Source of the DNA: Morinoia aosen
Lineage: Eukaryota; Arthropoda; Malacostraca; Amphipoda; Talitridae
NCBI GenBank assembly: GCA_030386875.1
Contig: CM059566.1
Location: 43,870,068-43,934,067 of the forward strand
DNA length: 64,000 nucleotides
Direction of reading: 5' to 3'
Of the stretch, positions 9,367 to 56,400 are shown piece after piece. A program made the translations under genes and the position numbers. The notes beneath the pieces were generated by a model. It saw only the letters and a program-made list of their open reading frames with translations. It was not told the origin of the DNA and searched no databases. Position 1 is the first letter of the stretch; each line of letters starts with the position of its first letter.

Positions 9367-10202
9367 CTAGCACCAATCATCTTCATCGCTGTCACTGTGG
9401 CGAGGTCTTCTCACAACTATAGGGGTGGTGGTCGATGGTTGCTGGGGAGGGAGAGGAGGCAGCGCGGACTGTGACGGCGGAGGTTGAGGTAGTCTAGCAG
9501 GGGGTCCACCCCCTCTACCAGGCTTGTAACCGTTTGGCACGGCGGGAGATGGCAGTTGTCGGCTTCCTCTCCCAATAGCGACGGCTTGTTCAAAACTAAG
9601 CGGCTCCTGCATGGGGCGCTCGTACGGATACTGGTCTCGAACAGGAGCGATGGGAGGTCGTCTGGGGCCAGCGGGGGGAAGCACCTTCACTGAAGGGGGA
9701 ATTCTAGGACGTGCACACCCGTCTACGAGAGGAGGAGTTCTGCGCTCTCTCAAGTTTGGGGGCAGGTCTAATTTCGGTATGTGAGTGGGCGATGCGTTCA
9801 GCTTAGGGAAATTGATAGGTTGGCCTCTACCGGGAGATTTAGGAAGTGTATGTCTCTGGGGGAATAGATGCAAGGTGGAGGGCTTGTTGGGGGTCTGTGG
9901 TAGTCGTCTGCCGCCTCCTCTTCTCTGGGGAATGGTTGGGTAGCTGCTACCTGCTCGCTGTCTGTGAGTGGGAGACGGACTGCGGGACCGCCTCTCTAAA
10001 GAAGCAGTGCCGTAGTAATGCAAGAGTCTGCCCCTACGAGTTGCGTGGCTGCTCTCTGGAGAAGGACTACGTGACCTAGCGTCAAGGCGAGTGGTTTGGT
10101 AGTAGCGGTCCGGGCTGTTGGACGCAGATCGAACGTCACGCGCGTTCCAGGGCCGACCTGCGAACAGGTCGCCACCTCGACCTATTGGGCTGGGGCCTCT
10201 CC
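9367..10202 (-). CDS. cac: CaV2 exon 14: terminal coding exon with RIM-BP and PDZ-ligand motifs
   Basis: Two bases complete G, then 277 codons and TAG. The acceptor is GTCCAG. Visible elements are two RSRSPSP motifs, [10 protein letters not shown] at 9880-9909 (the SH3 ligand of RIM-binding protein; vertebrate CaV2.2 has RRQLPQTP), several PxxP stretches, [18 protein letters not shown] and PNGY (matching vertebrate TFEEAVA and PNGY), and the final SDEDDWC. In CaV2 channels the D/E-x-W-C end binds PDZ domains of active-zone scaffolds such as Mint and RIM. The exon is GC-rich and the longest coding exon after exon 10. No AATAAA was convincingly placed downstream, so the 3' UTR end is unknown. 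Confidence 0.96.
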
Positions 10203-13200: not shown

Positions 13201-16200
13201 AGAAAAAGCTGAATGTTTAAAATTTATTGAAGCGAATTTGCCATTGAATCATGGATGAAGCATCAACATATATTTTAATGGATGAAAAAAATGATCGTGC
13301 GTTAGGACACCAAAGTTCACTGGTATGCTAGTCAGCAAGGCGTCGGTGGTTTAGATTAGATCATATGTTAGTTTGAGTCTCCCTAACTACTTAGGAAAAG
13401 CGTTCCGTAGAGAGGAAAGCACCATTTAGTATGAAGATAAGGGAAAGCGGAATCTATACACAAGGGCACAGAAACGGGAAGTTGAGAAACAAGTTTATGA
13501 AACAAAATAAATGTTGATGAAGAAAGTAGTAGGTGTAGTGAACCTAAAAAGTTAGTTCTTAACATAACAAAACAAAAAAAAACTACATTTAAAAATAAGA
13601 ATGCCTACCTAACTCTCAGCTCGGGAGGCAACGGCGGAACTGACCGATGCATTAGAGTGGGGGACTGGAAGCCTCTCGAGGGGGAAGGAGACCGCGACCT
13701 GTTGTACCTGGCGGGGAGCTCGTCAGGCCTGAGGTGCTTGCCGTGGGGCGTCCCAAAGTGAGGGAGGCCGTGGGGACCCGCGCCATCGTCAGAGGCTAAA
13801 GAGCCTCTACGGGAGGCTGCCTGCACCACCTCCGCCAGCTCCAGGCCCATCTGGTCGGATATTGGAGTTATTTCACAGAGTAGCTGGCACACCGCGCTCA
13901 GTTGATATCGGTCCTATTCTAGCTACATTCTATACGACTCTTTTTGGGAATGCTATACTTTCTTCAAATGTTTGAGAACAAACAAATTGAACCCGAATGC
14001 ACAGAAATTTATTACCGACACAGCTAATAGACTTTTATTTTAGCAGAGTGCTCGAGTGAAACGTGAGAAAATCCCTTGATAATACAAATTCTTAAAGGCT
14101 AATTGAGGTCTGTTCAGCTAGTTCAGCTACTAGCTTATCTATAAAGTGCTCCAACAGAATTGAAGGTTATGATAAGTACATTATAAAATTGAAACAAGCC
14201 CGCACATTCTGTAATTTTCATATAACGCAAAGAACGCTGGGTCAATTTCAGTAATAATCCTACCACTGAAAATGACCTTCCTGAAGCCCACTGCAAGAAT
14301 TAGAAAGTAAAACTGGGAATATTTGACGTCGTTCAGTTACAGAAGAACACTCTAAGCTCCGTCACTCAATTGTTAATGTTGAAGAGCGAGCACTGGCGTG
14401 AAACTTGCACACCACTAGATTCATGAGAAATGCACTTCTGAAACTATGAAAATACAATGAAAGTTCTTTCCAACCTCTTCCAACCTTAAATTTTTAATGA
14501 TTGCACATTTTTCCTAGTAAAGTAATACTTGGAATCTATAAAATAATGACCTAACTTGAATTCAAAACAAACTTCGTGATGTATGTAGGTCACACGTGGG
14601 CTGGATGAGGCTCCAGCCAACACAAAAGTAGTAGTACATGAGCATACTAAAACATTAGCACGACACAAAGTTACAAGTAAACAAACGTCACAAGAAATAT
14701 CTAGACGACGCACTCTTGCTTTAGATACTACACAAGCTGTTCACTGGGGGAGGGTTAAGCGTTCACATCATGGACTATTACAAAACGACCTTAAAATACA
14801 GATGACGCACTGGCATGGTTTCCACAACACAGAACTGCACTAACTCGCTGGACAAACGTCAGAAATGGTTTTGAAAATAAAATAAAAATCTAGACATTAA
14901 ACAATGCAACTAATGCGAGTTAGATAGGTACACTTCTTGAGCACCCAAAACACGGTGATCAACTCGTAGCTCGAATTAGTTGAGCTATCGTCTCAGCATC
15001 TACAGGATCTTTAGCCTCACTTTGAGTGTGAGGAGGGTGGCTACGGCTAGCCGTGAACGTAATGTGACTTCATTAATATTAAACTATGCAGTTTGATTTC
15101 TTCTCATTTCACCGTTATTACAAGTACCGTTTATAGACTGTCATGGGTACTAGGTTGCAATAGACGTTAGAATGAGAAACTGCCAAGCAGCTATGTTCTC
15201 CAAAGAACGTATTCACATAAAATTAAAGTAGAAATACTCGTAAAATTCATAAAATCTATTGACGTAGGTGAATTTTTAAATTCAATTTGTCGAAAAAAAG
15301 TCAAGGCTCTCTCAAAAAAATGTATTAGCACGTTCCAAAAAGTCGGAATGCTAATACAGGAAGCAATTTGATAAAAGCAGGGGACGCAAAGTTAAAACTA
15401 GTTATCAAAATAAAAAACTACGTAACCCCTGAATGAAAAGCTCCATTAGATGAAGTATAGTAACGATTAGCCGTAGCCAGGAAAGAAAGTAAAAGTTTAA
15501 TTCTTAACGAGAAGTAAGAAAGACAGATTTAAGGGAACATGGACGAACAATCACAAATACACTTCGGTGCACAGAACTATGACCTAAACGTTCCTTACGA
15601 AACTTCAATATTAAAAATGCGACTTATCCTAACAACAGAGCTATTCGTGAGCGCTAGAAACTTTAGTGAAGACAACCAGGGAGTTTGAACAAACACGAAA
15701 ATTTCACAAAAATCACAACAAAGGGAGTTCTCGTCGATAAGTTGACCTGGTGTAGCCAACTAACTAATTATACTCTAGTTCTAGGTGCAAAAAACAACAA
15801 ACTCTTTTAGTACAAACAAGTTTCGAAAACTTATTCAAGACAAACAGTTTCATAACTCGTTAACACAGAAACTGGGTTGAAATCTTCTAATACGAACACG
15901 CTTCAAAAATGTCTCATCAATAAGACAATCACCGTCATAGTCTTGACAACAAACAGGTCTATAAAATCCAACGATACCGTCATTCTAAATGTTTGAATGT
16001 GAAGCAGAAAGTAAGACAGGAAGATGAAGTTTCACTGTACATGTTTACGAGACGAACGGTGATTTTTAGCGCAAAAGTGACGAACATGAACTGGGGTATT
16101 TGCGATTTCAAAATTTCAAAGCGATTTTTCTTGAAATGTAAGACCATTTTAACACTTCGAAGTAGTGCGTAAAACAACTAGATTATATTTTACTCGAATG

Positions 16201-22200: not shown

Positions 22201-25200
22201 AGTGGTAGCTGTCAATGGCAATATTTTAATTCAGCACACAAGAAGAGGTATAAAATTCTTTTGCTACTAACGAGTAGCTATTTTTTATAAACGAGTTTGA
22301 GACACTAGCACTTCTCCGAATTCACGACTTGCTGAGAAGCTTGAGGCTTAGTAACAACAAACGAACCCCGTGCGAGAGACTGTCAGCAATACCTTAAGCC
22401 ACTAAGCCCCAAGAACTCTCAACCCAATTGAAAGAAGAAGGAAAGAAAAACCGTTCATTTCCCCAGAAAAGTTGATACTTTCGATAGTCAATAGTTCAAA
22501 CGTTGATACTTTTGATAGTTGATAGTTCAAACGTTGATACTTTTGACAATTCAAAAGTGGATACTTTCAATATTTCTAAAGTGGATACTTTTGATACTTC
22601 AAAAGTGGATACTTTCGATAGTTCGAAGAATACTTTCAATAGTTCAAAAGTCAATACTTTTCACAGTGCAAAAGTGGATACTTGTTTCAGTTCAAAAGTG
22701 GATACTTTCGATAGTTCAAAAGTTTATACTTTTGACAGTTCAAAAGTGGATACTTTTGTCAGTTCATAAGTGGATACTTTCGATAGTTCAAAAGCTTATA
22801 CTTTTGACAGTTCAAAAGTGGATACTTTTGTCAGTTCATATGTGGATACTTTCGATAGTTCAAAAGTTTATACTTTTGACAGTTCAAAAGTGGATACTTT
22901 TGTCAGGTCAAAAGTGGATACTTTTGTCAGGTCAAAAGTGGATACTTTTGTCAGTTCAAAAGTGGATACTTTCTATTCTTCAAAAGTAGATTCGTTCTAT
23001 TCTTCAAAAGTGGATACTTTCGATACCTCAAAAGTGGATACTTTCGATACCTCAAAAGTGGATACTTTCGATACTTCAAAAGTGGATACTTTCGATACTT
23101 CAAAAGTGGATACTTTCGATACTTCAAGAGTGGATACTTTCGACAGTTCAAAAGTAAATACTTTCGACAGTTCAAAAGTAAATACTTTCGACAGTTCAAA
23201 AGTAGATACTTTCGACAGTTCAAAAGTAGATACTTTCGACAGTTCAATAGTAGATACTTTCGATAGTTCAAAAGTAGATACTTTCGACAGTTCAAAAGTA
23301 AATACTTTCGACAGTTCAAAAGTAGATACTTTCGTCAGTTCAAAAGTAAATACTTTCGACAGTTCAAAAGTAGATACTTTCGACAGTTCAAAAGTAAACA
23401 CTTTCGACGGTTCAAAAGTAGATACTTTCGACAGTTCAAAAGTAGATACTTTCGACAGTTCAAAAGTAGATACTTTCGACAGTTCAAAAGTAAACACTTT
23501 CGACGGTTCAAAAGTAAATACTTTCGACAGTTCAAAAGTAGATACTTTCGACAGTTCAAAAGTAAACACTTTCGACAGTTCAAAAGTAAATACTTTCGAC
23601 AGTTCAAAAGTAAATACTTTCGACAGTTCAAAAGTAAATACTTTCGACAGTTCAAAAGTAAATACTTTCGACAGTTCAAAAGTAAATACTTTCGACAGTT
23701 CAAAAGTAAATACTTTCGTCAGTTCAAAAGTAAATACTTTCGACAGTTCAAAAGTAAATACTTTCGTCAGTTCAAAAGTAAATACTTTCGTCAGTTCAAA
23801 AGTAAATACTTTCGACAGTTCAAAAGTAAATACTTTCGACAGTTCAAAAGTAAATACTTTCGTCAGTTCAAAAGTAGATACTTTCGTCAGTTCAAAAGTA
23901 AATACTTTCGACAGTTCAAAAGTAAATACTTTCGTCAGTTCAAAAGTAAATACTTTCGTCAGTTCAAAAGTAAATACTTTCGACAGTTCAAAAGTAAATA
24001 CTTTCGACAGTTCAAAAGTAAATACTTTCGACAGTTCAAAAGTAAATACTTTCGACAGTTCAAAAGTAAATACTTTCGACAGTTCAAAAGTAAATACTTT
24101 CGACAGTTCAAAAGTAAATACTTTCGACAGTTCAAAAGTAAATACTTTCGTCAGTTCAAAAGTAAATACTTTCGACAGTTCAAAAGTAAATACTTTCGAC
24201 AGTTCAAAAGTAAATACTTTCGACAGTTCAAAAGTAAATACTTTCGTCAGTTCAAAAGTAGATACTTTCGTCAGTTCAAAAGTAAATACTTTCGACAGTT
24301 CAAAAGTAAATACTTTCGTCAGTTCAAAAGTAAATACTTTCGTCAGTTCAAAAGTAAATACTTTCGACAGTTCAAAAGTAAATACTTTCGTCAGTTCAAA
24401 AGTAAATACTTTCGACAGTTCAAAAGTAAATACTTTCGTCAGTTCAAAAGTAAATACTTTCGACAGTTCAAAAGTAAATACTTTCGACAGTTCAAAAGTA
24501 AATACTTTCGACAGTTCAAAAGTAAATACTTTCGTCAGTTCAAAAGTAAATACTTTCGACAGTTCAAAAGTAAATACTTTCGACAGTTCAAAAGTAAATA
24601 CTTTCGACAGTTCAAAAGTAAATACTTTCGACAGTTCAAAAGTAAATACTTTCGACAGTTCAAAAGTAAATACTTTCGTCAGTTCAAAAGTAAATACTTT
24701 CGACAGTTCAAAAGTAAATACTTTCGACAGTTCAAAAGTAAATACTTTCGTCAGTTCAAAAGTAAATACTTTCGACAGTTCAAAAGTAAATACTTTCGAC
24801 AGTTCAAAAGTAAATACTTTCGACAGTTCAAAAGTAAATACTTTCGACAGTTCAAAAGTGGATACTTTTGACAGTTCAAAAGTAAACAATTTCGACAGTT
24901 CAAAAGTGGATACTTTTGACAGTTCAAAAGTTACACAGAACTCATCTGGGCGACTGGCACGGCGAGGTCTCACCTTACGTGGTGAGGCGGCATGTGGCTG
25001 GACTTGCGCGGGTTGTTGGGGCGTCTGGGTTTGGTGCCGGGGGGGCTCTGCTGGTCTTCGTCCTGGGCTAAGGAGTTCCTGGAGGAGGCGGGGGCGCTAC
25101 GCCCAGGTGCCGTGGGCGCCGCAATGCCCATGAGGCGGGCGAACAAACTCGGCTTCTGGTCATTTTTTGGTGCACGTACGTTATTCTAGTGCCGGACATA

Positions 25201-34200: not shown

Positions 34201-37200
34201 CAGCATCTCCAGGAAGCATCACGTCAGGACGGCTATCTTGGCGTCTGCCATGTCGGAAGCGCAGGTTTCCGTTGACGGGCTTCAGGTGTCCGTTGCCAAG
34301 ATGATTACGTCCTTCTTGATATGGGTATAAGTTTGGCAGCAAGCGTTCACTCGGTGATGAGAAGCTCTGCAGAGGGAAGTGTTCAGCATTCAAATTTCTT
34401 TCAGCTTCATCCTCATAGTTGAAAGAGATGCGAGTAACATCTTTCTCTTCGGTGTCACCCAGTGGATTCGCTACTATCTTGGTGTCTGGCAACTTTTTGT
34501 GATAAACTCCAATGTATTTCACAGGTTTTCCATGGTGCGATTTATCAAAGTGAGGTAGGTCACCGTTGCAAACGAAAATGTGATGATCGTCGTCGCCGTC
34601 TGTGGGCGATCGCGCGATGTGTCCCAGCCCATATGTCGTAGGAGCTTCATCGTCAGCCATGCTCGGCCATTTTTCGTTCTCAAAGTAAAAGTCAAGAGGC
34701 TGTGGCTCTCTTCGTGAGGGTTCATGAGTTTTGAATAACAGTGGATGCTCTTCATCCTCAGATAACACTTGTTCATCGCTATTCTGTAATTCATCGCTCT
34801 TTTCCTGTTCTCTTGAGTTTTCATCATCTTTGCATTCGTCTTCAACATCGTCATCAACCGAGTGATTCTCATCGAAAAATTGGACATCATCTTCGTTTCC
34901 TTCTGCTCTCTGGTGAGCGAAAGTAATGCGGAGCAAACGAAAGATAAATAAACAATAAAGTATTTATGACTATTGTTGAGAAATAATATCAAACGAGAAA
35001 AATGAAACAATGTGTACGTTAAGTTGAAAAAACAACAAAAGAAACGAGATTTAAGTAAATCGTTTTGAGATTTATTAGTTAATAAACCAAACATTCTCGT
35101 CGCTCATTACACGCTGAAAAATGCTGAAAGATTGTAAAAAGAAAATGGGATGAAATTAGAACTTAACTCACATCTAAGTGAGACTGGGCACATCACAAAA
35201 TTTGTATAAAAAAAATCATCGACTTTAAGAGTATGGTCCCATGAATTACAACTCGTGATTCATGTCTCTCAAATGATGGCCTTACATGGTGCAATCAATA
35301 CGATGAAAGGGATTATGTTTTTAAACTGAACCTAAACCACACTTCATAAATTATTCTTTCCCTTGAGAAAATTTCCTGTTCAGAAACTTTAATGTGTGGG
35401 ACATTATCAGCAGGGCCCAAAGAACACATGAGTCAATATGAATCGAGTACATTCGAGAACCAATATATATTTGGGCAACTGTCAGATTTCATGAAAGCGA
35501 CGTCGAAAACGCGAAAAAGAGGCGAAGCAAAAACCAGAGGAAGAAGACAGACCTTCAACAGTTACTCATAGCTTAGAATCCGCTCACCATTTTCGAAGAC
35601 AATCATAAATTCACAGACATACAGAATTTCCAGAATTATTGCTGAGGGTATGATACCAACTCTTCTGTTGTTGTGAATGCTGGCACATTTGTGACGAGAA
35701 TCCTGTGCACAGCACAACAATCAGAAGCACACCTGCATCCTGGACAAAATGACTGCGTACACCAACACTCAAGAAACCAACTACGATCGATCTTTAAGAA
35801 AGAACTTGAGGATAATTCTGGTCGAGAATGGGAAATTATGTGAACAACTCAGCAAAGTTCCTTAAAGTTTAATACTGGGCAGAAACAATCTTTGATTCAA
35901 GTCGTGTACACTTATGGCTCAAGACTCAAGTTATTATTAATATAACATCCAATTTTCCAATATCATAAGATCAAAATCATCCGAGGTAGCTGTATACTGT
36001 GTTTTTACAACATCAGTTTTCTCTCAAAATTTTTTGTGATACAAAAATGTGACAGTCCTCGAGAAGATCGCTCAAGAAACGCTGGCTGGACAAGGCAAAT
36101 CCAAAATCAACTACCGCCGCTCAGACTCAATTTCACCAGCGACCCCAGAACATCTGAAGCGTGTCAAGTGTTGTTGAAATAGTCCTGGAATTGCAAAGTT
36201 GCGCTCGTCTTGCTCCAAACGGACGCTGTCAATTGTTACAAATTTAAATGCAGGATCACGTTGGAGTTCGAGTTCCAAAGCGTGAAGATACTAGTGACAC
36301 ACCTAGAAGAAATCTCACCAGAAAATATTTCGAGGCTGTAAAATAAGGTATAAAGAAAGATACAGAGATTATGTGTGCATCGCAGAGTGTATACGTAGCA
36401 GAAACGATTAAATGATGTGAATCGAATATTCATTTCGATATTGCTCGAGAATAACGAGCAGGTAATTAATTGAGTACACAAAGGATAAATTGAATATTAT
36501 TGGACGTTGTATTTGATCACTTACGGTCCCGGTGGGCTGAATTTGACCAAAGCGCGTCGTGTTCCAGTTGTCGAGGATGAGGAGACCCGCGTAAATTTTA
36601 CCCACGGTGAGCTTCTCGTACACGAGCTCTGCAAAGACCCGAGTTTAATTTACCAGTTAAAATTGCTAAAAACTCAATCTAGAGCTAGCAAATAATCCGA
36701 CTTTTCAGTCAGATCGGAGACTGTAAGATGGATATTTAACTGTTGGAACCTGATGAACAGCCAGTAAATGACTTCTATTTCCTGACAGCTTATGATGCAC
36801 AGACCTGATTTTTCACAACGCTTGATTGACCTCATTAATGGCCACACCTGGATGCCTGGTTAGTGTTTTTACATGCAAAAATTCCCAAATTAGTCCGAAA
36901 ATGGGGTCAATCTTATACTCATGCAACATCCAGTCCAATAGCTTACCAATTAGTTCAGAAAAAGGGCCAATTTTAGAGCCTCGCAACATCCAGTCCAAAA
37001 GTTTACAAATTAGTCCAGAAAATGGGCCATTCTTATAGCCTCGCAACGTTCACTAGACGACGGGCAAAACAAAAGGTCGAAAAGCAACTCACTGCACACA
37101 ACCCTCACGTCAGGCTAAGATAATGTCTCGATTACCGTTATCAGGAGGGACGAGGTAATCAATGAGTTTTTTGGACTGCATCGGCCAGATCTTCTTGATG

Positions 37201-40200
37201 GTCTGCCTGAGCTCGAAGTCAGCGGTGTCCATCTCGTGAGGCAGCCGCATCTTGATGGCAAGGTTCTCACGTATGAGGGCGAACAGCGTGGTTGTGAAGT
37301 GGACCTGGTGAGCAAAGCGGACGCTAAAATGCTTGCTTCTACGAGTCTATACTTATACCTACTGATACGAGAAAACTTATACTTTTACCATGGTTACTAG
37401 GGAACTTATTTACCTGGTGAACGAAACAAATTTTCAAATGCCCCAGCATATCAGAGACGCTTAATCCTACACGTGTACTTAAGAAAAATTATCATACTAC
37501 CGAACTTGACCGTTGCGATGAGCCATAACCTGCGCAGGCTACGTACAAAATGACGAACCTTCAAGTTCTCATCGAGCGGCTGGTTCATGCGGATGAGTTT
37601 CTTGTAAGCGAGTCTGTGGGGGCACTTGTTGCCGAAGCCGAGGGGAGGGTCCATGTTGCGCAGCATCTCGTACATGTCCGTGTAGTGTATCCTGCCTCTG
37701 CTCAGGCATGAAGCGTTTGAAAGATTTGACAATTTATTTATCACAAGCGATACTGACACATTTGAACAATTTATTTATCATAAGCGATACAGAGACATTT
37801 TTGACAATTTATTTATCACAAGCGATACAGAGACATTTTAACAATTTATTTATCACAAGCGACACCGACACATTTTAACAATTTATTTATCACAAGCGAT
37901 TCAGAGACATTTTAACAATTTATTTATCACAAGCGATACAGAGACATTTTAACAATTTATTTATCACAAGCGATACAGAGACATTTTAACAATTTATTTA
38001 TCACAAGCGACACCGACACATTTTAACAATTTATTTATCACAAGCGATACAGAGACATTTTAACAATTTATTTATCACAAGCGACACCGACACATTTTAA
38101 CAATTTATTTATCATAAGCGATGCAGAGACATTTTAACAATTTATTTATCACAAGCGATACAGAGACATTTTAACAATTTATTTATCACAAGCGATTCAG
38201 AGACATTTTAACAATTTATTTATCACAAGCGATACAGAGACATTTTAACAATTTATTTACCACAAGCGATACAGAGACATTTTAACAATTTATTTATCAC
38301 AAGCGACACCGACACATTTTAACAATTTATTTATCATAAGCGATACAGAGACATTTTAACAATTTATTTATCATAAGCGATACAGAGACATTTTAACAAT
38401 TTATTTATCATAAGCGATACAGAGACATTTTAACAATTTATTTATCACAAGCGACACCGACACATTTTAACAATTTATTTATCAAAGCGATACAGAGACA
38501 TTTTAACAATTTATTTATCACAAGCGATACAGAGACATTTTAACAATTTATTTATCATAAGCGATACAGAGACATTTTAACAATTTATTTATCATAAGCG
38601 ATACAGAGACATTTTAACAATTTATTCATCACAAGCGATACCGACACATTTTAACAATTTATTTATCACAAGCGATACAGAAACATTAAAACAGATTTAA
38701 CAATTTAAACTATTTGTTTACTTCAAGCGGTACAGTAGTGGAGTGTTTCTTGAGTCTAGTACATTGGTTACATTTGAGTATAGCTAACTGTAGCAGTATC
38801 AACTAAGGAAGGCTAATGGATGAATTTTATCAGAGTATAGTCATAGTAATTACTTTGTAAACACCGAGGTAGTTGACCGTTAAGGTGGAAAATTATTGAT
38901 TGATTTTAAGTTAGTTTTAGCCTCCCGTACCCTAACAATGATGTTCAAAGAGAGGAAGGATGAAGGCACCATTTAGTATGGAGTTAAGGGAACGCGGAAT
39001 CTATCCATAAGGTGTGCAAGTATATATGTATTCAATTTGTGTGTAATAACTTTCGCTTCTACTTCTAATCAACATTAATATGAATACGAGCGCAATTTTT
39101 GCAAGCTGTTTATCATCTTAAGATGACTGAATTTTTTAGCTGACTGAAGATAGTTATGAAATAAATTACTCTTTTCATACTCATAACTCGCAGCTGCATT
39201 GGCCGTTTCAGTAAAAGACACAATGAAATCCCGATATCATTATTTTGTTATACTTTACTCGGGGGCAACCGCTGGATGTGTGAGCGTTAGTGGATGGGAA
39301 GAAAATATTCTAGCGATCTAATATGTAAAAAGAAGCAACTTAAACACTGACATACTTGAATTCCATGCTCGTAAATACAAGTGAATTAACTCACAGCTAA
39401 GCTGTGCATGTCTCATCCCTTATGCAACGATAACACAGTGTCGGATAGTTTTCAGAATAGACAAAACTTACAATTTAAAACATCATCGCGTCATTGAAAG
39501 TGATCTCTCACTGGAACTGCTAGCAAAAAACAATTAAAAATTGCTGCTAATCTTTTCTTACATGAAGCGCAGATAAAATGCAATACTTTGATTCAGGTTA
39601 ATCAAAAATACGTCTTTTTAACGCACTTCAATCGTCATAATTAAATCCGTTCGTGCCAACAATCAAATGAAGAGAAATTAACGTCAAGACGTGACTAACT
39701 CAGCACTGAACACAGCGCGTCGGGTCTAATGTAACTTCTCCTTCATTTAATGATCAAAAGTGTATTTTTGATGAAGTCCAGTAGCCTCTCAATAAATAAC
39801 ATATTGTTTTCTTTGAATTGGTTTTCCGATGTTAAATAAATATAGTTGCTTGAATGGCATTCCTAATTTTTCAGTAAGAACATTTCTTGAATCGTTCGTC
39901 TCATGTCTCAGTAAATATGTTGTGCGAATTGTTCGTTTGATGTCTCTATCAAACTGTTCCTTGAGTGTTACGACTGACGTCTCAATCAATTAACTGTTCG
40001 AATGGTGTGTCTGACGCCTCCACCAGTACATTGTTCCAATGTTGTGTGTCTGACGCCTCCACCAGTACATTATTCCAATTGTGTGTCTGACGCCTCCACC
40101 TGTACATTGTTCCAATGGTAGGTGTCTGATGCCTCCACCAGTACATTGTTCCAATGGTGTATCTGACGCCTCCACCAGTACATTGTTCCAATGTTGTGTG

Positions 40201-43200: not shown

Positions 43201-46200
43201 ACATTGTTCCAATGGTGTGTGTCTGACGCCACCACCAGTACATTGTTCCAATGGTGTGTGTCTGACGCCTCCACCAGTACATTGTTCCAATGGTGTGTGT
43301 CTGACGCCTCCACCAGTACATTGTTCCAATGGTGTGTGTCTGACGCCTCCACCAGTACATTGTTCCAATAGTGTGTGTCTGACGCCACCACCAGTACATT
43401 GTTCCAATGGTGTGTGTCTGACGCCTCCACCAGTACATTGTTCCAATGGTGTGTGTCTAACGCCTCCACCAGTACATTGTTCCAATGGCGTGTGTCTGAC
43501 GCCTCCACCAGTACATTGTTCCAATGGCGTGTGTCTGACGCCTCCACCAGTACATTGTTCCAATGGTGTGTGTCTGACGCGTGATTCAGTTAAGTGTCGG
43601 GGCAGTAACAGCCCATTGGAATGCAGAAGAGACAAAACTAGCTATCAAAAAAAATAACTGCATCATTTAAATTGATTTTTCATTCCAATTGCTCATACAA
43701 ACAGTTAATAGTAATATTTAGTAAGTAATAATATTTTAATTGAAAGACTCACGTGGCGTTGGGGTCGTACTCGGCCCATATTCTGATGTACTCGTCGAGG
43801 TGGTGGGCGCCCAGGATGGAGGAGTCACGCGTCAGGTAGTCAAAGTTGTCCATGATGACGGCCACGAACAGGTTCAGCATCTGCAACGTGTCATTCAGAT
43901 AAATGATTTCATTGATTATCATTAACCCATAACCGTCAAAGTGGATTTTGAAATCCACTTTATTGATTTCAAACAGCTCTGAAATATTTTATTAGAGCTG
44001 TTTGACAAACAGCTCTAATATAGCAAACAGCTCTAATATAGCCCACCGCTTATTAAAATTAAAAGAAATAATTAGAAAAGTCAGTGATATCCTAAGTTTC
44101 ACAGATAGAAGGAATGTGTGTAATAAAATCAACAGACTATGAGAAAGAAGGCGAAGAATTCACAGATATAAGCAGAAGGCTTGAAATCCAACACAATAAC
44201 AGCTTTCGGGCATCAATAAATATTGGTACATGTAATTAATTTTTTTTTTGTATTGAATTTTAGCATCATTTTACCGCGAGTTGCTAGAAGTGCTTGATCT
44301 TGCTGAATGTATCTGCTTTTACCTCCACACGGATATAAAAATGTTCTAATCATTAGCATTAAATTAAGATGATGTATAGAATGTGTGTTGGTGGCCGCAT
44401 CTGGAGGGAATTTTGAGAAGCAGTGCAGCTTGTCACAGATACGCTCATCACAGACTTTCAGTCGTGTAAGTAATCAGGATGCAACGAACGTTAGGCATGT
44501 AACCAACCAAATCACAAGTTTTACGAGCTTTACCTAATAAAATTGAATGGGACCATAGTTGACAGAAAACAAACACTAATTCATGAGAATAATGAAAACG
44601 ATATGAAATTATTAGGCCCTATGAAAGCTCAATAATCACGAGAAATGAGCAGGAAGGAGACGGTTTAAAACTTACAAGAAATACGAGGGCGTCATGGAAC
44701 CCATAAAGACTTACAAGAATACATAACTCACGAGAAATGCGCTGAAGGCTTAGACTAAACTCACAAGAAATACGAAGTCGTCATGAAACCAATAAAGACT
44801 TACAAGAGTAACTGACGAGAAATGCGCAGAAGGCTTAGACTAAACTCACAAGAATTACGAAGGCATCATGGGAGTAACTCACAAGAAATGAGCAGAAGAA
44901 GATGAAAGACACGAAGTAAGCGTAGGCGATATTTGAGCCGCACGTCTCGTCCTTGTTTTCTGCGAGCGCTCTGGGGTCACAAGGCACCCCAGCGATGCAC
45001 GAGAGCATGATGCTCTGCCAGCTCTCTCCGGTGGCGCATCTGCAGCCCAACACAAGTTAGCGCCTCACTGATTTTGGCTCACCTGCACACCCTTATTTTC
45101 TACCAGCGTAGCATGGATACCCGGCGTGCTTTTGATAATCTGAGCCGCAGGAGAAGATGAAATACAAGGAGCTTTTCCGAGTGTTTGTAGTTTTAGTGGA
45201 ATGCTATAATTGTGATACTCTCTACGTTTATTGAAGGAATTCTCATCTTTGAACATTTTCGCAGGAAACAACGAAGCATCCGTCGAGTCAATGAGGTCAC
45301 GTCGCATGAAGGATTTGATTATTATATGTTTCAGTATATCAAATCGAGAAAATGGAACACTTGAGAATTTCACGTACCCATCCAATGTGAAGTACTTGGT
45401 TTCACTCAGCAAAATAAAGAAAGCGATTAACTGGTGGTCAGGTAAAAACTTATGTGAGCTTAATAACGCCGTTCATTATTGGGTGCTTTTTCAACTCCGA
45501 GATCCAAATAGTTTTGATTTTTTTGCAATTCCTTGATGTTTATATTGCTCTAACTCTTAAACGAAAATTAAAGCTTTGATGTTTTGAATATATTATCACC
45601 GGTGTTTAAAAAACTTGTAAACTTCATCACTTCAATATCGAATGAGATTTACGTACTATCATTAACAAATTTAACGGGGAAATCTTGACGAAAACGTTTG
45701 AGTGCAAAAAAGACCGATGGCCAATTGCAAGTAACGGATGAAGAGAGCATTTCCCAGCATTATGCTCAGAGACAATAGCTGAGACCCGATTTACTGACAG
45801 AGAAAATGATAAAGAGACACCTACCTCCTGGACAAACACGACGTACACAAAAATTGCACATAAGAATAATCACAGCACCGTGACTGAAATTCAACATATT
45901 TCACTTCAAGTACTTGATTTAACAAGACAACAATAAGGATATTTCAAGATTAAATATGTGGCAAAAAATATTTCAATCAACGAAGCTAAAATTAGTTATA
46001 CACTCATGAAATAATTTCATATATTATATCTAAATTGGTAACATCGAAAATAAATTCCCGAAGTATTTACAAGAAAATAAAAACAACAAGCAGAGCGACA
46101 TTAGGCCAGCTAAAGCAAAACGACATTCACAATTATACAAAATAACGTTTTAGAATCTATTGAACTACACCAAACGGTATGATGAGACTCAACTCTAAAG

Positions 46201-49200
46201 TATGTTCATCCCATTGTGTCGTAGGGGAAAACACTGTACAGATAAACTGTAGAAGCGTGCACAAAACAATCAAACGTGTTAAACAAGAGCACTAAAGCTA
46301 TTTTAGGAATACGCTATTCATGCCACTAACGCTCAACAAACGAAAAGCTTCACATATACAAGTAACGGACAAATACGTACGTGCGTGGGATAAGTAGGAA
46401 AATGTGTCTTTGTACAGAAAGAATCACGGAACAATGTGCGTAAATGGAGATTACGGCTCAATATGGGCGCTTCAATTACAAAGAAATTCGGCATACACTC
46501 TCATCGTCTGTGAACAGCGAGACTAATATTCATGAAAGCTACTAGCAGTATTAGACGTGTGTAGTATAGGCACACAACGAACCATATTATCAGTTCAAAA
46601 AGACACATTTCCATTGAAACCAAATGAAAATACCATTTTGCAACGCAACTCAACTCCCGTTGGACGAGTGCTCGCATTGCACAAAAACCAAATATGGAGG
46701 CATTCGCGGTGCTTCAGTGAGGGGGCACTAATACTTTCATTTAGGGTCACAACGATATAGTTAGGCTCTGTCGTTGCAACCATCGTGAACTGGACGACAA
46801 TATATACCGCAACCAGGGGCCTCTTCCATTCTCAGCGCACGCATCCAGGGCTTGGATAGCACTCAGAAGGAAGATAGGCAGCAAATATTGGGCAGCGATG
46901 AGCTCACAGAGAAATATGACGCAAGAACGTAAACTTTCGTACACGTACGTTGTCATCTCTTTGCTTCGCAAAACAAGAATTGAGTCAAGCAAGAAGTTCA
47001 CTTTGCATGCCACAATTGACGCGAGCGCACTTCAAGAACACCATTTTAACGATGCTCAGTCGTAGATTTTGACCTTCGAATTTATTAGCGAGCAATTAAA
47101 CTGAGCTGAACTGAATGGAAGAGGATCATGGTGCGGGTGAAAATAATACGGAGCGCTCCAAAATCCGGGTAGGGGATGAGGGAGATGGTGAGGGGCAGTG
47201 AGAGGCTCACGAGGAAAAGCAAGGTGTGGAGGAGGGAAGGTTCACATAATCACGTTGACGCTTAATCAAATTTTCTTAAGAAGCCGATGCAAAATTAATT
47301 AAGATTTTGTTTAGTTAAAAGGCCTAGGGCTTTCTTCACCTCAGACGGAGAGGTGTAGTAGGGATAGAAGTGAACGGACGTGTGTGTGTGTGTGTGTGTG
47401 TTGTGCGCTAAGTATGTTTTATATGTTTTATAAGGATATATACAAATTTTTTATGTTACTTTCAAGTGATTATAAGAATATAATCTCAGTGGCATTGAAA
47501 TTATTTAGTGTTATTCAAGACTGCTGAAGTATACGGACATTTGGTTATGGAGGGCCCTCGAAAAATAAGAAAGTGCAAATTTTCTCTTCCCCCACAAATG
47601 AAATTAGACACCGAATAAAAATATTTTTTCATCAAAAAATCGAAACAAATGAACACAAACTACCGTTTTTCATGAATACGACCTTACTTGCATTTTGAGC
47701 CTGTGTGGGTTATATTATTAGTTCAATTTTTAAAATAAATTCAAAGTGTAAGCCCTTTATCATAAGAGTTAGCTTCACATAGAAATTTTACGAATATTTT
47801 GCAGCCACAACGTCACACAGTATTCCACACACAAAGAACTCATTGGTAATTAGCGTAAAGTGTATATAAATTCTTCCATCACGTGATGCATGTGTAATTT
47901 TGAATGTATAAACAGAAAATGATGCTGCGAGTTCAAGTAAAATCCTGCGACGTACTCGGGAATAGCAAGATTGCAACTTGCGTATGAACTGCACGAATGT
48001 AGCGTTGCATTGTGATCATAGGGTGTTCGTATGCTTGCTGGCGGAGAGTGTGGTCATTCAAAAGAAGTAAAGCAAAGCAAAACCATAGCTGCAATATTGG
48101 CTTGAAGGGAGCAACCAATGAATGAAACAGACGATTAAAAAAGTATCGGGTACTTGAAATAGTTCGGCAGGACAAGAAATCGGTGCTGTGGCACACAGTT
48201 AATCGTATATCAAATCAATACGACAATATATAGAAGTGGTCCAAGTGATAAGCTTTTGAATAGAGAGAGATATATATATACCACAGGGATAAGAAGGAGA
48301 TTACCTGAACAGTAGCATTAGACCTTGCCAAAAATTCCTAAAGTTGTTGTGACGAGTGTAAGAGGTCATTGGGTCCAAAAGAATAGCCCCAAATACCTGG
48401 CAAAAAAACAACGAAACAACTTAAGAAATGCTCTCTGCTGGGCGATGCTAGAACCGCTCGTTCGGAGGTAGTTCGTAAGCTACGTGATTTGCATGGGCTG
48501 CTTGGAGGGGAGTAGAAGAGGTTAGAAAAGGATTAGTATATGTTAAAGGGTATAATAGTAGAGTACAGGATGCAAATAGATCGAAACTCACTGCAACCAG
48601 ACCATAAAATGATGCAGTGAAGATGTGTGTATTTATATATATAATAAAAGGTAAACATTCTTTCAACAGTTTTGAGGATGTACACGCAGCAGGAACGGGT
48701 TCAGGTTAGAATAAACATGGCGATTATTTCGTTGGTCGGACTCAACTTTTGGGACGGTAACTATATGAAAAGAAACCACAAACACAGGGATAACGGAGAG
48801 GAAAACAAAAGACGATTAGGAGAGAAAGCAAATGAGAGATATTTTTCCTTCTAGCAAGCAAATTTATCCAATTCGATAGTTTAGTTTTGGAGAGAATTTT
48901 ATGGTTGTTAAGACCCGGAAATGGATAGAGCGACTGCAGCTAATGTAACCACACAAACAGATGAGAGGAGAACAAAGTTGGAGGTTGAGCACACAGCCAT
49001 AAGAAGTGGCAGAACCATCATATCGAAAACATCACATGAGCATTCAAATAAACACAAAGCGAACTTTTGGACCTCTGATATCTTTAAATTAATGTTCACA
49101 CAACCAACACGACCATTAAAGTCTAATTTTGCTATGAAACTACGATATGTTCTAAATTCTAAGTCAAGAAATGCATAACGGAACGGAGTCTATGGAAGCA

Positions 49201-50401
49201 ATTAACTACTTGTAGCTGTATTTTTTACAGTGAGTAAAGGTACCGATGACTGTAATTACTGGTGTGTGGCACTGGAGAACACTCTCTGTGGCACACGTTT
49301 GAGATGTCCAACTTAAAGGTTCTCGATGCCAAGGAAAGTAAAAACTATTCTAGAGAGGTTCTAAGCCTTTCTCACATTTCACCATATTTCTTTCAATTAA
49401 AACTTTTTCTTGCGTTCTATAACGGTGCACATATTTTTTTTATCAACTGTGATATGAATGTTGCTTGTATACCCGTTATTAGGGCAGAATCCATTTCTAA
49501 AAAGGCAGGTAATACAATCGTATTTTGGGATAGTGAAATGCGTAGCTCGAGCATACCTGCAAAACGCGATCAAATTTAAAACCTGGTTTGCGAGAAAAAT
49601 TTTTGTGTCTCTCAATATCATTCGACCCATCAATTAATTTGTGGAAAGAAAGAAAATACTAATTCATTATAGAAAGTCACCTCACCTTGAACTTAAAATA
49701 TTTTCAGTGCGCCTAAAGACGTACAGTGGCTCTCAAAGTAAGCCTTAACATTTCGGTTGAGCGTCGTGCAGCCAATGGCTTCCCATACTTGGGTTCCAAT
49801 TAAGAATGTTGTAACCTAACATTGAGAGACTTGCAGATCTGGCAAATAAATGCTTGCAGACATTCGGAATGCTCTTCAGGGAAGTTGAATAGCTATGACG
49901 GTGTTTGTCGGTTTTGAGCAACAAAAATGTTATATGAATGACTATCGCAGACATAACATCTCACTCGGTACGAGTACTTGTGCGGCTGGTATTTTTGAAC
50001 GTTTCTGATTGCAGAACATCCAGCTATTTGTGTATGAATTTAAAGGAACTATTCCAAGAACTGTTAAACCAACAATAACGGTGAAAATACCTTTTTGCGT
50101 TTGAATCAAGCATCATGAAAGAGCTCTTTCTGATATTCTGAAGTATTATTCTATATTAAAGTAAGAAGGAACCATTGCCACAGTGGTATGCTTTGTTTAT
50201 CCACCCGTAGCTATCATTTTATCGTTCCGGACACCAAAAATACCCTATTCTGTTTGAAAGAAATGAATTAACTGCTCTTTAATAGCGAATTTTCAGAAAA
50301 AATAATAACTCAGATGAAAATGCAATGTATTTATGACTGTTATTTAGGTCAGATGGGGTAAGTGCGCATCTGAAAAAGTACGAAAATACTTTCAATACAA
50401 C

Positions 50402-50446
<45 letters not shown>

Positions 50447-53400
50447 ATAGACATGGTACCAACGAACAGCAAGAAAGTTAAGAACGGAACAAACAATCTC
50501 TGTTAAACAGTAACCACTCAACAGGACCACAGAGAGGCAGGTTAAGGGGAAATGTGACCTTTCGGAACCATCATTTTTAAATTCATTTGCAATCCCTGAC
50601 GAGCGTGAGCACATTTTCTCGCAAGTTACGTAGAATTTTCCTTTATTTTCAGGTAACCGCGGGAGAAATTTAGATGGCTCAATTTTGGTGCATGTTATAT
50701 TGGCGATCGTTCAGTGGACTTAAAAAGATTGGTCCTGATAAATCAGTACTGAAGTTGACTGAATAAACTATACTTCAAAAGACTCATTGAAAGCGCCTCT
50801 CACGGTTGTAAAATCTTTGAATATATACATGAGGCTTTGGGTCTTATTTTCTTCCACTATTTGAAAATATTGGTTGGGTTTGACTTGAGCTCATGAGCGA
50901 AAAGCGAATTTGTTATGCAATTCCAAGAGGCCATTATGAACAAGGAGGACTGGAGGGACTCGTGGGATAAAGAGGAAGAAAAGAGAAAGACGAAGGCATG
51001 AAAACGAACAACTAGGAAGCTATAGAGTCCATGTGTTTAGTTCTGACGAGCAGCTAAGATTCCGCGACGGAACTCTAAGGAAGAAAAATAAGAGGCTTGC
51101 TCTATGCGGGCTCCAGTTTCATAACAACTCGAACAAACTCACCGAAACAAGAGCAATAGTGCTGCGAAGAAAGACTGAAAGTTGTTATGTCTGTTAAAAT
51201 CGGTGTCTGGGTCAAATTTCATATTGCCAAAAACCTGGAAGCGGTAGCCCGGTCGCGAGAAAGAAAGAAGAAACTTGATCAGGACTGGTCATACGCAACA
51301 CAAGTTTGAAGAAGTGCAGCAGTTAAGAATTGCAACGCTATCGTTAGGGTCAGCTCACAGAGAATTCAGCATCAGTGGGACGGATTCAAAGGAAATATGC
51401 AGGAACAAAAGGAAGTAGAATAATATCCTAAGAGTGACAGGTACACAAAATCTTTGGGTCAGCGATTTCTCTAGAATATGATGGCACGCGCATCGCTTAT
51501 AGTTTCATAAAAAAAAAATTCTTGTCATTAGCAGAAATTTTCTTGAGATCTCAACAGTCTTTGCTAAGATTACGTTAACGTTGGTCTCACAGATATTGTT
51601 CAATTGCATTTTGAAGGCGCCACTTAATGGTCGACTTTTGGTACACCAAGTTCTAAACCAAATAACCCAAGTCTGAGGTAATACAAATTTCAGGTGTTAT
51701 TCCTCAAATGAATTTGACAGCAATGGGTACAACAATCACTTTATAGAAAATATTGATAATACTACAAAATATTGATAAATATTGATAATGATATAGAAAA
51801 TATTGATAAAATATTGATAACAGACAATTGAAAAAACTTTACGCAGCTCACTTTTAAACGTCTTTTTCGCTCACTCGAAAATCTTCCCTACAGTCAAAAA
51901 GATAAATAGCAGACAGAAAAGGAGCATGATTCTGAAGGTAATTCCGTCATAACTGGTGAAAGGATTTCTCGCGCAATGGAAGCAGAATTCTTAGTTTCTA
52001 AAAATACATGAAATGAGACTTTGAGATAGATATTCACAGGAAACGAAATTAGAAAAAGTATAATTGCAAGAATATTGGTATCAAATTTTAATTTCCTCTT
52101 TATTGAAGCTTCTGAAAAATAAACGCAGGAGTAATTACAAGCAGAGTATATGTGTGTGTGTGAGGCAGGGCTGTAGAACACCGTGCTGCTGAGGCTGGGA
52201 GAACACCTTATTGAACACATCGTCAAATTTTGAACACGACATGAAATTTAATAATAGACCTCCTAGCATACGAGGTCACTTAACACGTCTCCTATTAAGG
52301 GCCCACCGGTGGTTACTAAGGGTATTTTCATAATGCTGCTGACCGATCAGCAGCCACTGACTCAATTTTCATAAATACTGCATGCAAACTGAATGAAGGC
52401 TCGGCTTATTAAACGTTAGTAATCCTAGAAAATGATGTATGAAATTGGCTCTAATTTGATTTGAATATTGAACATCAGTTTAACCGGCCGCAGTTAACGT
52501 GTAAAACTATAACAATTATTCTACGACTGAAAACAGACACAAAGGTTCCTCAATAGGAAGTTTGGCAGCTACGGAGGAAGCTCGTAAGGGGAAGATTTGG
52601 TAGCCTGACAGTATGGAATCAACCATGTCATGAAATAAATGTAATTATTTCACTAATTCGATACGTCAGAACTTGCAGCCCCTAGAAAGTCATACCTAAC
52701 GTCTTAAACATTTTTACCTTACTAGTACATTGCATGTTTACAATTTATTAATTCGGTGGTCAAACGTCGTATATAACATTAATAATGCCATTTATTATTA
52801 CGGTATCGGGATATCTGAACCTGATGAACCCGTTCAAAATTCAACCAATGATCAGACTGGATTTAAGCGCCCGTGAAGAGTCGTACGTGGGAGCTGAGCT
52901 ACTGACTGTAGGACTTGACTTAACTATTGATGTCAAACACGAAAGACTGACATAACAGTTCATTATTGATGTCAAATACAAAAGATTGACATAACAGTTC
53001 ATTATTGATGTCAAACACGAAAGATTTACATAACAGTTTTTCCAATGAGAGAGAATTTCGCGTTTGGGTCGGGTCTCCGTGGGACAAAAGTACATTTTAA
53101 ATATGTGCATTTGCTTCTTGACTTTGACAAGAATGCTTTGGCGCATCGCAGAAATTTGGATGCCTGAAGTGCTAAATGATTCGCAACAGGAAAAAAATTC
53201 GAGGAAACTAAGTTGCAGAGAGTTAGTTGCCATGTAACTTTCTAAGGCACTCACTAAAAATAGTTGTTTTTTCTTATCTCTTTTTCGCTCATTTACTAGG
53301 GGAATATGAACAGAAATCTATTTAATCTTCACGCAAGCAAAATTAAAATGAAGGAAGTTATTTATTGAAAATAGGTGAAGTTTTTGTGTAGTTAAGTCAA

Positions 53401-56400
53401 CATTTCTTAGAGTGCAATCGCGGGAGTAGAATTTGAGCTGGGATATAAGCTAGGGTTAGTCTCCTAACATTTTATCAACATATCATTGCTCCTCAGTATC
53501 AACACGTCATTGATTCAGAATATCAACACATTATTGCTCTAGATTGGTCTAGAATATCAACACTTTGTTACTCTAGAATACCATTGTATTATTGCTCTAG
53601 AATATCAGCACGTTATTGTTCTAGAATATCAACACATTATTGGTCCAGAATATCAACCCATTATTGGTCCAGAATATCAACACATTGTTGCTCCAGAATG
53701 TCAACCCATTATTGGTCCAGAATATCAATACATTATTGGTCTAGAATATCAACACATTGTTGCTCCAGAATGTCAACCCATTATTGGTCCAGAATATCAA
53801 TACATTATTGGTCTAGAATACCAACACATTGTTGCTCCAGAATGTCAACACATTGTTGCTCCAGAATATCAGCACGTTATTGTTCTAGAATATCAACACA
53901 TTGTTGCTCCAGAATGTCAACCCATTATTGGTCCAGAATATCAATACATTATTGGTCCAGAATATCAACACATTGTTGCTCCAGAATGTCAACCCATTAT
54001 TGGTCCAGAATATCAATACATTATTGGTCCAGAATATCAACACATTGTTGCTCCAGAATGTCAACACATTATTGGTCCAGAATATCAATACATTATTGGT
54101 CTAGAATATCAACACATTGTTGCTCCAGAATGTCAACACATTGTTGCTCCAGAATATCAGCACGTTATTGTTCTAGAATATCAACACATTGTTGCTCCAG
54201 AATGTCAACCCATTATTGGTCCAGAATATCAATACATTATTGGTCCAGAATATCAACACATTGTTGCTCCAGAATGTCAACCCATTATTGGTCCAGAATA
54301 TCAATACATTATTGGTCCAGAATATCAACACATTGTTGCTCCAGAATGTCAACACATTATTGGTCCAGAATATCAATACATTATTGGTCTAGAATATCAA
54401 CACATTGTTGCTCCAGAATGTCAACACATTGTTGCTCCAGAATATCAGCACGTTATTGTTCTAGAATATCAACACATTGTTGCTCCAGAATGTCAACACA
54501 TTGTTGCTCCAGAATATCAGCACGTTATTGTTCTAGAATATCAACACATTATTGCTCCAGAATATCAACCCATTATTGGTCCAGAATATCAAAACATTAT
54601 TGGTCCAGAATATCAATACATTATTGGTCCAGAATATCAACACATTGTTGCTACAGAATATCAGCACGTTATTGTTCTAGAATATCAACACATTATTGCC
54701 CCAAAGTACCCCTACAAATGAACAAAATAAAATGGCAATCAATGAATGCGCTTGCTACGAAGCACGTGTTTAGATTAATTTTTCTTCGATTAGTAAAATT
54801 CGGGGAGACGAGCGCTGATAAAATTTCAATACCTACTAAAACGATGGGAGAAATTAACGATCGCGTCACGCCTGCAAGACTCGCACTTTGGCTTTAGGGG
54901 AAATTAAATGAGCGAGTTTTGGTTGAACGTCGGAGCTCATTTACCTCAGAATATATATAAAACATGAACAGCAAAACCAACAACGCACCATTTGAAAGTT
55001 TGCATTGGTACATCAAACTGTAGATGCTGGAGCAATGTAGCATGTGCGTTCTATGGTACGTTTAAATGGGAACAATGAATGACATGTCAACAATGAGCGT
55101 TTGTGAATACTCCTACGAATCTTCAGGCTTAATGAAGCACTAAAATATGAGGTATTGTCATAGGAGGCTATCAGATCAGTTAAGTTTAGGATGGCTTCCT
55201 CACCTGCATGCCGATAATTGCGTAGATGAAGAACAGGATGACGATAAGCAAGCAAACGTAAGGAAGCGCCTGAAAAGAGAAAAAACATCAGAACAAGACG
55301 TCAACGTTACACCAAGTTCGTATTCGAAGAAATGTTCGTCACGCAAGCTGGCGAAAGGGAGAAAATAAGCGGAAACAGTTTATTTCCATAAAATGGATAC
55401 GAAAAATGTACAACACGGGTTTCTAAAAATGTCTTAACATAAATATATCAAAATAGCACTGTCCATGGTTGAACGAAAGAGTGAGAGAAAAATATGGAAA
55501 TATATTCCCTTGCTTGAGTTATGCTAAGAGTGAGAAAGCTTATAATTACTGGCGAGAAAAGAGAAGACGGTGACAAAATGATGAAGAACGTCTTCACATA
55601 CTTAGACACGCAAGCTTAGGCTGCTGTAGCAGTTCCTATCATTGTTCAAAGTATAATGAGTGAAAAAAATGCTTCTACATGTACATAAAACTAAAAGGAC
55701 AACTGCACGAATAGAAAAACAAAAGACGATCAGGAGAGAGCAAATGATAGGAGCCCCTGGGGTTTGATCGAACTCAAGTTAAGAACCACTGTGCTAGAGG
55801 ATGTTGTACAGAGCCTCCTCATGTGGCGGCTCATTGAGCACGACAGAGCAACACCCCACACACCAGCGCATGAGCTACGTTCTAAAAGAACCAATTTCTC
55901 GGAGGTTCTTTGCGTTATTACAAGAAGTATGTGGCTTTTAATCAAAGGAACGATTTAGTTAGATTTTGACTTACAAGCCATTCAAGGATAAGAGTAAATT
56001 TGTAGCTATATTCTCAGGTTCCATCTAACTGAAATTGTATGCAGTGGCCTGAGACACACTCACAATACACGTATTCAAATATTTCCTGACATCGACGTGC
56101 TACTTACTTTGAAAGATTGAATGAAAGTCCAAAGTAAGATTCGGATGGTGTTTCCTTGTCTCAGGAGTTTGATGAGACGAGCGGCACGAAAGAGTCGTAG
56201 AAATCTCAGGTTGATGTAGTTGTTCGACTGCAAAAGTTACAAAGTTTTAGAAAACTCAATAAGCGATGCCTAAACAAAAAATTCTTCCTAATTTTAATTT
56301 TGTCTCTTTTCAGTTGTGTCTGTAATGGTAAAGTGACCGAGTGTCACTCGACATCCATGTAGTGTGGCCGTCAACTATTACGGAACTAATCGCGTAAAAA

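What the first reader, a model, noticed from the sequence alone, without database searches (positions are those of the whole stretch)
48305..51234. Mutually exclusive exons rewrite the domain IV S5-P turret of a CaV2 channel
Two exons of exactly 92 nt, with the same phases and good splice sites, both bridge IVS5 (..IIGMQ) and the selectivity loop (RCATGESW). They match at 16 of 30 residues. Version a ([13 protein letters not shown]) carries D at 10 and 12 and K at 6. Version b ([14 protein letters not shown]) lacks these and has R at 20, and their pore-helix starts differ (FFAALLLLF against FWQGLMLLF). Using both or neither breaks the frame, so the gene can build two outer pore mouths. The CaV2 alternative exons I know of are elsewhere: in Drosophila the IS4 and I-II linker pairs, in vertebrates 37a/37b in the EF-hand. 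In mollusc T-type channels, alternative S5-P turrets change sodium against calcium permeability, so an analogous switch in a presynaptic channel would matter. I do not know of a published description for CaV2.
Basis: partly seen in the sequence, partly recalled or inferred. Interest (0 to 1): 0.88.

Follow-up and report, generated by a model that had tools for sequence, protein, structure and literature searches.

The report
Swappable pore exon in arthropod CaV2
This crustacean's main presynaptic calcium-channel gene carries two interchangeable versions of a 30-residue piece of the channel's outer pore, and the same choice turns up in predicted channels of shrimp, water fleas, mosquitoes and fruit flies, so it looks like an old, little-studied way of making two kinds of pore from one gene.

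Summary
On the minus strand of a CaV2 gene, two tandem 92-nt exons (a 51143-51234, b 48305-48396) have equal phases, GT-AG sites and 16/30 residues alike. Either joins IVS5 to the filter in frame; both or neither gives an early stop. The best full-length match, the amphipod Hyalella, carries exon a letter for letter. The pair is not peculiar to this animal: 219 of 219 listed hexapod and crustacean CaV2 proteins carry exactly one form (37 a, 182 b). Twelve species have both on contigs of equal length; in Penaeus japonicus and Daphnia pulex two isoform models differ only here. Ten exons compared from five species are each nearer to an exon of another order than to their sister, so the duplication is probably old. 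The charge story and sodium/calcium analogy are not supported: charges vary between lineages. The conserved contrast is N14 against mostly T14, and A/G24 against Q/E/D24, at the pore helix. In ten literature searches I saw no paper placing a pair here; a 2022 survey counts three cacophony events, the third not located in the section read.

The parts
61932..62015 (-). CaV2 exon, domain IV S2-S3 region ([28 protein letters not shown])
   Evidence: aligns to Hyalella P0114 from residue 1127
56108..56227 (-). CaV2 exon, IVS3-S4 and S4-S5 linker
55204..55269 (-). CaV2 exon, IVS5 ([22 protein letters not shown]), 66 nt, phase 0 to 0
51143..51234 (-). alternative exon a, 92 nt, [30 protein letters not shown] + 2 nt
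   Evidence: identical to Hyalella P0114; type-a residues N14, Q20, A24, A25, LL26-27
48305..48396 (-). alternative exon b, 92 nt, [30 protein letters not shown] + 2 nt
   Evidence: type-b residues T14, R20, Q24, G25, LM26-27 (compare); 23/30 identical to Penaeus japonicus b
44883..45039 (-). CaV2 exon, selectivity loop CATGESW, P2, IVS6 start; 157 nt
43753..43880 (-). CaV2 exon, IVS6 end and EF-hand start ([42 protein letters not shown])
37559..37697 (-). CaV2 C-terminal exon ([26 protein letters not shown]..), GPHH region
37136..37304 (-). CaV2 C-terminal exon ([15 protein letters not shown]..), IQ-associated
36523..36628 (-). CaV2 IQ-domain exon ([22 protein letters not shown]..); 3' end approximate
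24937..25155 (-). CaV2 distal C-terminal exon ([14 protein letters not shown]..); limits from the protein match only, which runs through a stop codon near its end
13644..13850 (-). CaV2 distal C-terminal exon ([17 protein letters not shown]..); limits from the protein match only
12916..13044 (-). CaV2 distal C-terminal exon ([16 protein letters not shown]..); limits from the protein match only
9370..10203 (-). last CaV2 coding exon, [13 protein letters not shown] motif and terminal [10 protein letters not shown]
   Evidence: 93% identical to Hyalella P0114 over 278 residues

Best explanation
Exons a and b are a tandem-duplicated, mutually exclusive pair in the CaV2 (cacophony-type) gene of an amphipod-like crustacean, inherited from an early pancrustacean ancestor. 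Each transcript takes one of them to build the domain IV turret and pore helix (P1) in front of the unchanged TGE filter. Shown here: the pair, its frames, its occurrence in annotated channels of crustaceans and insects, and residues that tell the two types apart. Inferred: a splicing choice by cell type or stage, with transcripts holding both or neither stopping early and being degraded. Also inferred: the choice changes how the domain IV pore helix packs behind the filter (N14 and a small residue 24 in a; [quoted passage not shown] I put the structural claim at about 0.95, the old age of the pair at about 0.85, and a change of permeation or block at about 0.45.
For: Exon anatomy and frames. 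CaV2 identity: Ion_trans, GPHH and Ca_chan_IQ domains, DSSILG and terminal DDWC, Hyalella type A alpha-1 as top full-length match at 89%. Both types on contigs of equal length in 12 species: P. japonicus, D. pulex, An. funestus, An. maculipalpis, An. darlingi, An. aquasalis, Anastrepha ludens, Eurosta solidaginis, D. albomicans, D. navojoa, D. hydei, D. virilis. P. japonicus X8 against X7 and D. pulex X10 against X11 differ nowhere else. 221 of 221 fetched long proteins carry exactly one such segment. For 10 of 10 exons of five species (window, P. japonicus, An. funestus, D. pulex, D. virilis) the best match in another species (21-29 of 30) beats the sister exon (16-19); Daphnia a ties between a exons and one b exon at 21. 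Residue 14 is N in 6/6 distinct a exons and in 1/30 b; residue 27 is M in 30/30 b and 1/6 a (types were called by residue 24). AlphaFold model of a b-type fragment: exon residues 13-42 = end of S5, loop 15-33, most of P1 helix 34-46, matching CaV2.2, CaV2.1 and CaV2.3 first in the PDB.
Against: No RNA reads could be examined; the isoforms are database models, and such pipelines favour in-frame ones. The listed Hyalella model has only exon a, and the listed barnacle, Periplaneta and Cherax models only b (clusters hide member isoforms), so use of both is not shown in every lineage. Window exon b has residues seen in none of the 30 other distinct b exons (A4, Y13, W23), compatible with relaxed constraint. 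The exon is 30 residues, so the tree is weak, and it places a Schistosoma channel among the a exons. No functional data of any kind.
Confidence: 0.86

Rival explanations
1. One exon (most likely b) is a decaying relic in this species: both exist in the DNA, but only a is used.
For: Window b has A4, Y13 and W23, seen in none of the 30 other distinct b exons; the listed Hyalella model carries only a.
Against: Open frame, pyrimidine-rich acceptor, GT donor, exact 92 nt, and b-type residues T14, Q24, G25, LM26-27 and R20 (R20 itself is in 17 of 30 b exons) are kept. A dead 92-nt exon would be expected to lose these.
Confidence: 0.08
2. The exons switch ion preference (sodium against calcium), as exons 12a/12b do in mollusc CaV3, through turret charges.
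For: Same kind of site (S5 to P1) in a related channel; here, and in Daphnia, the two exons differ by two net charges.
Against: The charge difference is absent in Penaeus and small in Anopheles and D. virilis, and K6 does not sort with type; no cysteines; domain IV, not II; the filter glutamate is in the common exon.
Confidence: 0.07
3. Assembly artefact or collapsed haplotypes: the second exon is a misplaced copy.
For: Repeat-rich region.
Against: Only 60% base identity; no second significant match to the eight other exons tested; both types exist in 12 other species.
Confidence: 0.01

Closest known systems
cacophony (Drosophila CaV2) IS4 and I-II linker exon pairs (PMC11828482, abstract and passages seen; PMC12370356, passages)
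   Same: Same gene family; tandem, equal-length, in-frame alternative exons chosen one at a time in an invertebrate CaV2.
   Different: Those pairs change the domain I voltage sensor and the beta/G-beta-gamma linker; this one changes the domain IV outer pore. The eLife paper states that only two mutually exclusive sites exist in cac; models of several Drosophila species carry a third variable segment at IV S5-P.
Three tandem-exon events counted for cacophony (PMC9741552, section 16 read whole, passages)
   Same: Tandem duplicated exons in arthropod CaV2; the third, unlocated event could be this pair. Among the listed Drosophila models IS4, I-II and IV S5-P vary and IVS1-S2 comes in one type.
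   Different: Of the cacophony events section 16 describes only the beta-binding (I-II) one; the others are not placed in it, the figure is not held and the supplement could not be looked up.
CaV3 (T-type) exons 12a/12b (PMC4436565, passages)
   Same: Alternative exons running from S5 to the pore helix just before the filter.
   Different: Domain II, cysteine-rich, different lengths (about 41 and 52 residues), sodium/calcium effect reported; here domain IV, equal length, no cysteine, effect unknown.
Vertebrate CaV2 exon 37a/37b (PMC6880636, start of abstract in the listing; EF-hand position recalled)
   Same: Mutually exclusive pair in CaV2.
   Different: Different protein region and different lineage.

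Membership tests
CaV2 alpha-1 subunit | Ion_trans pore with GPHH and IQ domains in order | tested here: met
   173.7 (a) and 168.9 (b), 101.7 and 96.7 bits, above the curated cut-offs
CaV2 alpha-1 subunit | domain IV filter glutamate (TGE) | tested here: met
   RCATGESW
CaV2 alpha-1 subunit | CaV2-like rather than CaV1-like tail (DSSILG; terminal DDWC; diagnostic value recalled) | tested here: met
   best full-length matches are named type A alpha-1
CaV2 alpha-1 subunit | domains I-III of the same gene | not testable with these tools
   outside the window; own-genome search not answered in 7 tries
mutually exclusive tandem exons | homologous neighbours of equal phase between the same two constant exons | tested here: met
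mutually exclusive tandem exons | one alone gives an open frame; both or neither does not | tested here: met
mutually exclusive tandem exons | isoforms with either exon from one gene | tested here: met
   met in relatives, as database models; not seen for the window's own species
mutually exclusive tandem exons | RNA showing exclusive use | not testable with these tools
   no transcriptome collection
CaV3-type S5-P selectivity switch | domain II position | tested here: not met
   domain IV: best stretch is CaV2.3 residues 1606-1707; fold search
CaV3-type S5-P selectivity switch | cysteine-rich loops of unequal length | tested here: not met
   both exons 92 nt, no cysteine
CaV3-type S5-P selectivity switch | turret charge that sorts with exon type across species | tested here: not met

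The most novel reading that the evidence does not exclude
Arthropods with one CaV2 gene have kept, since before crustaceans and insects parted, a third and in many lineages a fourth (IVS1-S2) exon choice that gives presynaptic channels different outer pores and sensors, chosen independently of one another, and so get from splicing the channel diversity that vertebrates get from three CaV2 genes.
Probability: 0.4. Interest if true: 0.8.

Novelty: new variant of a known kind. Interest (0 to 1): 0.62.

Why it matters
The fly papers seen here treat cac diversity as two exclusive sites. A pore-facing pair that is conserved over this depth, present in Drosophila species and testable by the same exon-removal methods, would be a direct handle on how one CaV2 gene makes functionally different synapses, and on whether outer-pore blockers see two kinds of arthropod channel.

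Tried and rejected
Charge-switch and sodium/calcium readings: rejected on cross-species comparison. Assembly duplication: rejected. Further duplicated exons of this gene inside the window: none for the eight other exons tested, and single matches for the distal exons. RNA pairing that could enforce exclusivity: inverted repeats over 45040-55203 (75 pairs, the 25 longest shown) are mostly TA-rich or minisatellite matches, uninformative. Steric exclusion: the a-b intron is 2,746 nt, too long; the splice sites of both exons are GT-AG. GCATG motifs: 4 between 45000 and 55300, none next to a or b. ORF 33866-34963, part of the length padding in two searches, has no Pfam match and no match to the fetched proteins; it is not counted as part of the gene. 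A first concatenation used a P/S6 end one base too long and gave a false stop; corrected.

Limits of the counts. Proportions of a and b mean nothing: one search was asked with a b sequence, with an a sequence; each lists the best 120 of 5,496 and of 6,740 matches, as clusters that may stand for up to 720 members. The 221 proteins are all that these two calls fetched as new; the 113 shorter ones were not typed systematically (named examples: Diploptera a-like, Timema b-like). The 12 species with both types rest on equal contig lengths, not on contig names. In one search one residue was left out of the Daphnia b and of the D. virilis b exon so as to compare 30 positions. The model used 20 of the 113 fragments and has mean pLDDT 72 (mean 50 over residues 21-30). 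The literature listings show 10 of 134 and 12 of 415 papers.
Full report
What is there. The window's minus strand carries the 3' part of a CaV2 calcium-channel gene, from the domain IV S2-S3 exon at 62015 to the last coding exon ending [10 protein letters not shown] at 9370. Its translation matches Hyalella azteca type A alpha-1 (P0114) exon by exon, 89% over the 352 residues searched, and P0114 carries exon a letter for letter. Hyalella is an amphipod, so the source is probably an amphipod or close relative; that is inference from one protein.

The pair. Between the IVS5 exon (55269-55204) and the filter exon (45039-44883) lie two 92-nt exons, a (51234-51143) and b (48396-48305). They have the same phases, share 16/30 residues and 55/92 bases, and have GT-AG splice sites; a has its pyrimidine tract set further back, b one next to the AG. 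The introns are 3,969, 2,746 and 3,265 nt. Each exon alone gives an open frame across 444 nt; both together stop at nt 187 and neither stops at nt 127. So a working channel needs exactly one of them, and nonsense-mediated decay would be expected (inference) to remove the other products. What sets the choice is not visible: no steric constraint, no informative pairing.

What the segment is. Against solved structures, the a form scores best with human CaV2.3 (172.1 bits; CaV1.1 167.9) and the b form with CaV1.1 (153.9; CaV2.3 144.1). An AlphaFold model of a b-type fragment (P0009; mean pLDDT 72, mean 50 over residues 21-30) has S5 helix 2-14, loop 15-33, P1 helix 34-46, P2 50-56 and S6 from 78; the exon is residues 13-42. 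The model matches CaV2.2 first (TM 0.76 on the query, 70% identity). The exon is therefore turret plus most of P1, and the filter glutamate is in the constant exon.

Relatives. Two full-length searches listed 120 proteins each and brought in 221 distinct new ones; 221 of 221 have exactly one such segment. Leaving out a Schistosoma and a mammalian protein, 219 remain, by their listed names hexapods and crustaceans: 37 of type a (6 distinct) and 182 of type b (30 distinct), called by residue 24. Residue 14 is N in 6/6 a and T/S/Y/H in 29/30 b; residue 27 is L in 5/6 a and M in 30/30 b; residue 20 is Q in 6/6 a but R in only 17/30 b. Twelve species show both types on contigs of equal length. P. 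japonicus X8 and X7, and D. pulex X10 and X11, differ only at this exon. In P. japonicus all four combinations with the IVS1-S2 alternatives occur among the isoforms (P0117, P0119, P0122, P0123), so the two choices look independent. Ten exons from five species are each closer to an exon of another order than to their sister (Daphnia a matches several a exons and one b exon equally, 21 of 30). Against this: several listed species show one type only, the 30-residue tree is weak, a Schistosoma exon falls among the a exons, and the tree has rows from fragments without species names.

Mechanism. What differs consistently is the start of, and sites inside, the pore helix, not turret charge: net charge a/b is -1/+1 here, -1/-1 in Penaeus, 0/-1 in Anopheles, -1/+1 in Daphnia and 0/+1 in D. 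virilis. I therefore think that the choice alters packing of P1 against its neighbours and so filter stability, conductance, inactivation or blocker access. This is inference from position; nothing was measured.

What is known. Fly papers describe two exclusive pairs, IS4 and I-II, and one says that there are only two. A survey counts three tandem-exon events in cacophony without placing the third in the section read. Among the listed Drosophila models IVS1-S2 comes in one exon type and IV S5-P in two, so the third may be this pair; no listed row is named D. melanogaster. CaV3 exons 12a/12b are the analogue by site, but are in domain II and cysteine-rich. Ten literature searches listed no paper that I could identify, from title, abstract start or the passages read, as describing a CaV2 domain IV S5-P pair. 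Only open-licence papers are held, some listings were capped, and four papers were seen in part (PMC9741552, PMC4436565, PMC11828482, PMC12370356).

Verdict. A real and apparently old alternative-exon pair, already present in database isoform models but not, as far as I could find, described. Its existence is close to certain, its function open.

Noticed in passing
P0117 against P0122 (Penaeus japonicus), residues about 1153-1188; other CaV2 models: Domain IV S1-S2 also comes in two clearly different types within one species' models (P. japonicus, Anopheles maculipalpis, Chironomus tepperi, Daphnia carinata), but in one type in the listed higher flies; Cherax and Arctia rows show only the rarer type. 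One An. funestus model (P0221) seems to hold both in a row. The corresponding exon lies upstream of this window.
   Followed up: partly
window 40005-43580, 22524-24931, 53544-54703, 37725-38699, 1845-2799: Large tandem arrays (units 39, 24, 72, 37 and 30 nt; up to 100 copies): the first four lie in introns of this gene, the last beyond its 3' end.
   Followed up: no
window 33866-34963, minus strand: A 366-codon stop-to-stop open frame with an acidic stretch, inside the CaV2 intron after the IQ exon; no Pfam match and no match to the fetched proteins. Could be a nested gene, an unannotated exon or chance.
   Followed up: partly
window 56108-56227: S4-S5 linker reads [13 protein letters not shown] where the other arthropod models printed have [13 protein letters not shown] and Hyalella [13 protein letters not shown].
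   Followed up: no
exon b, 48305-48396: With exon b the S5-S6 segment scores higher with L-type CaV1.1 than with any CaV2 chain in the structure database; with exon a CaV2.3 comes first, though CaV1.1 still exceeds CaV2.2 and CaV2.1.
   Followed up: no
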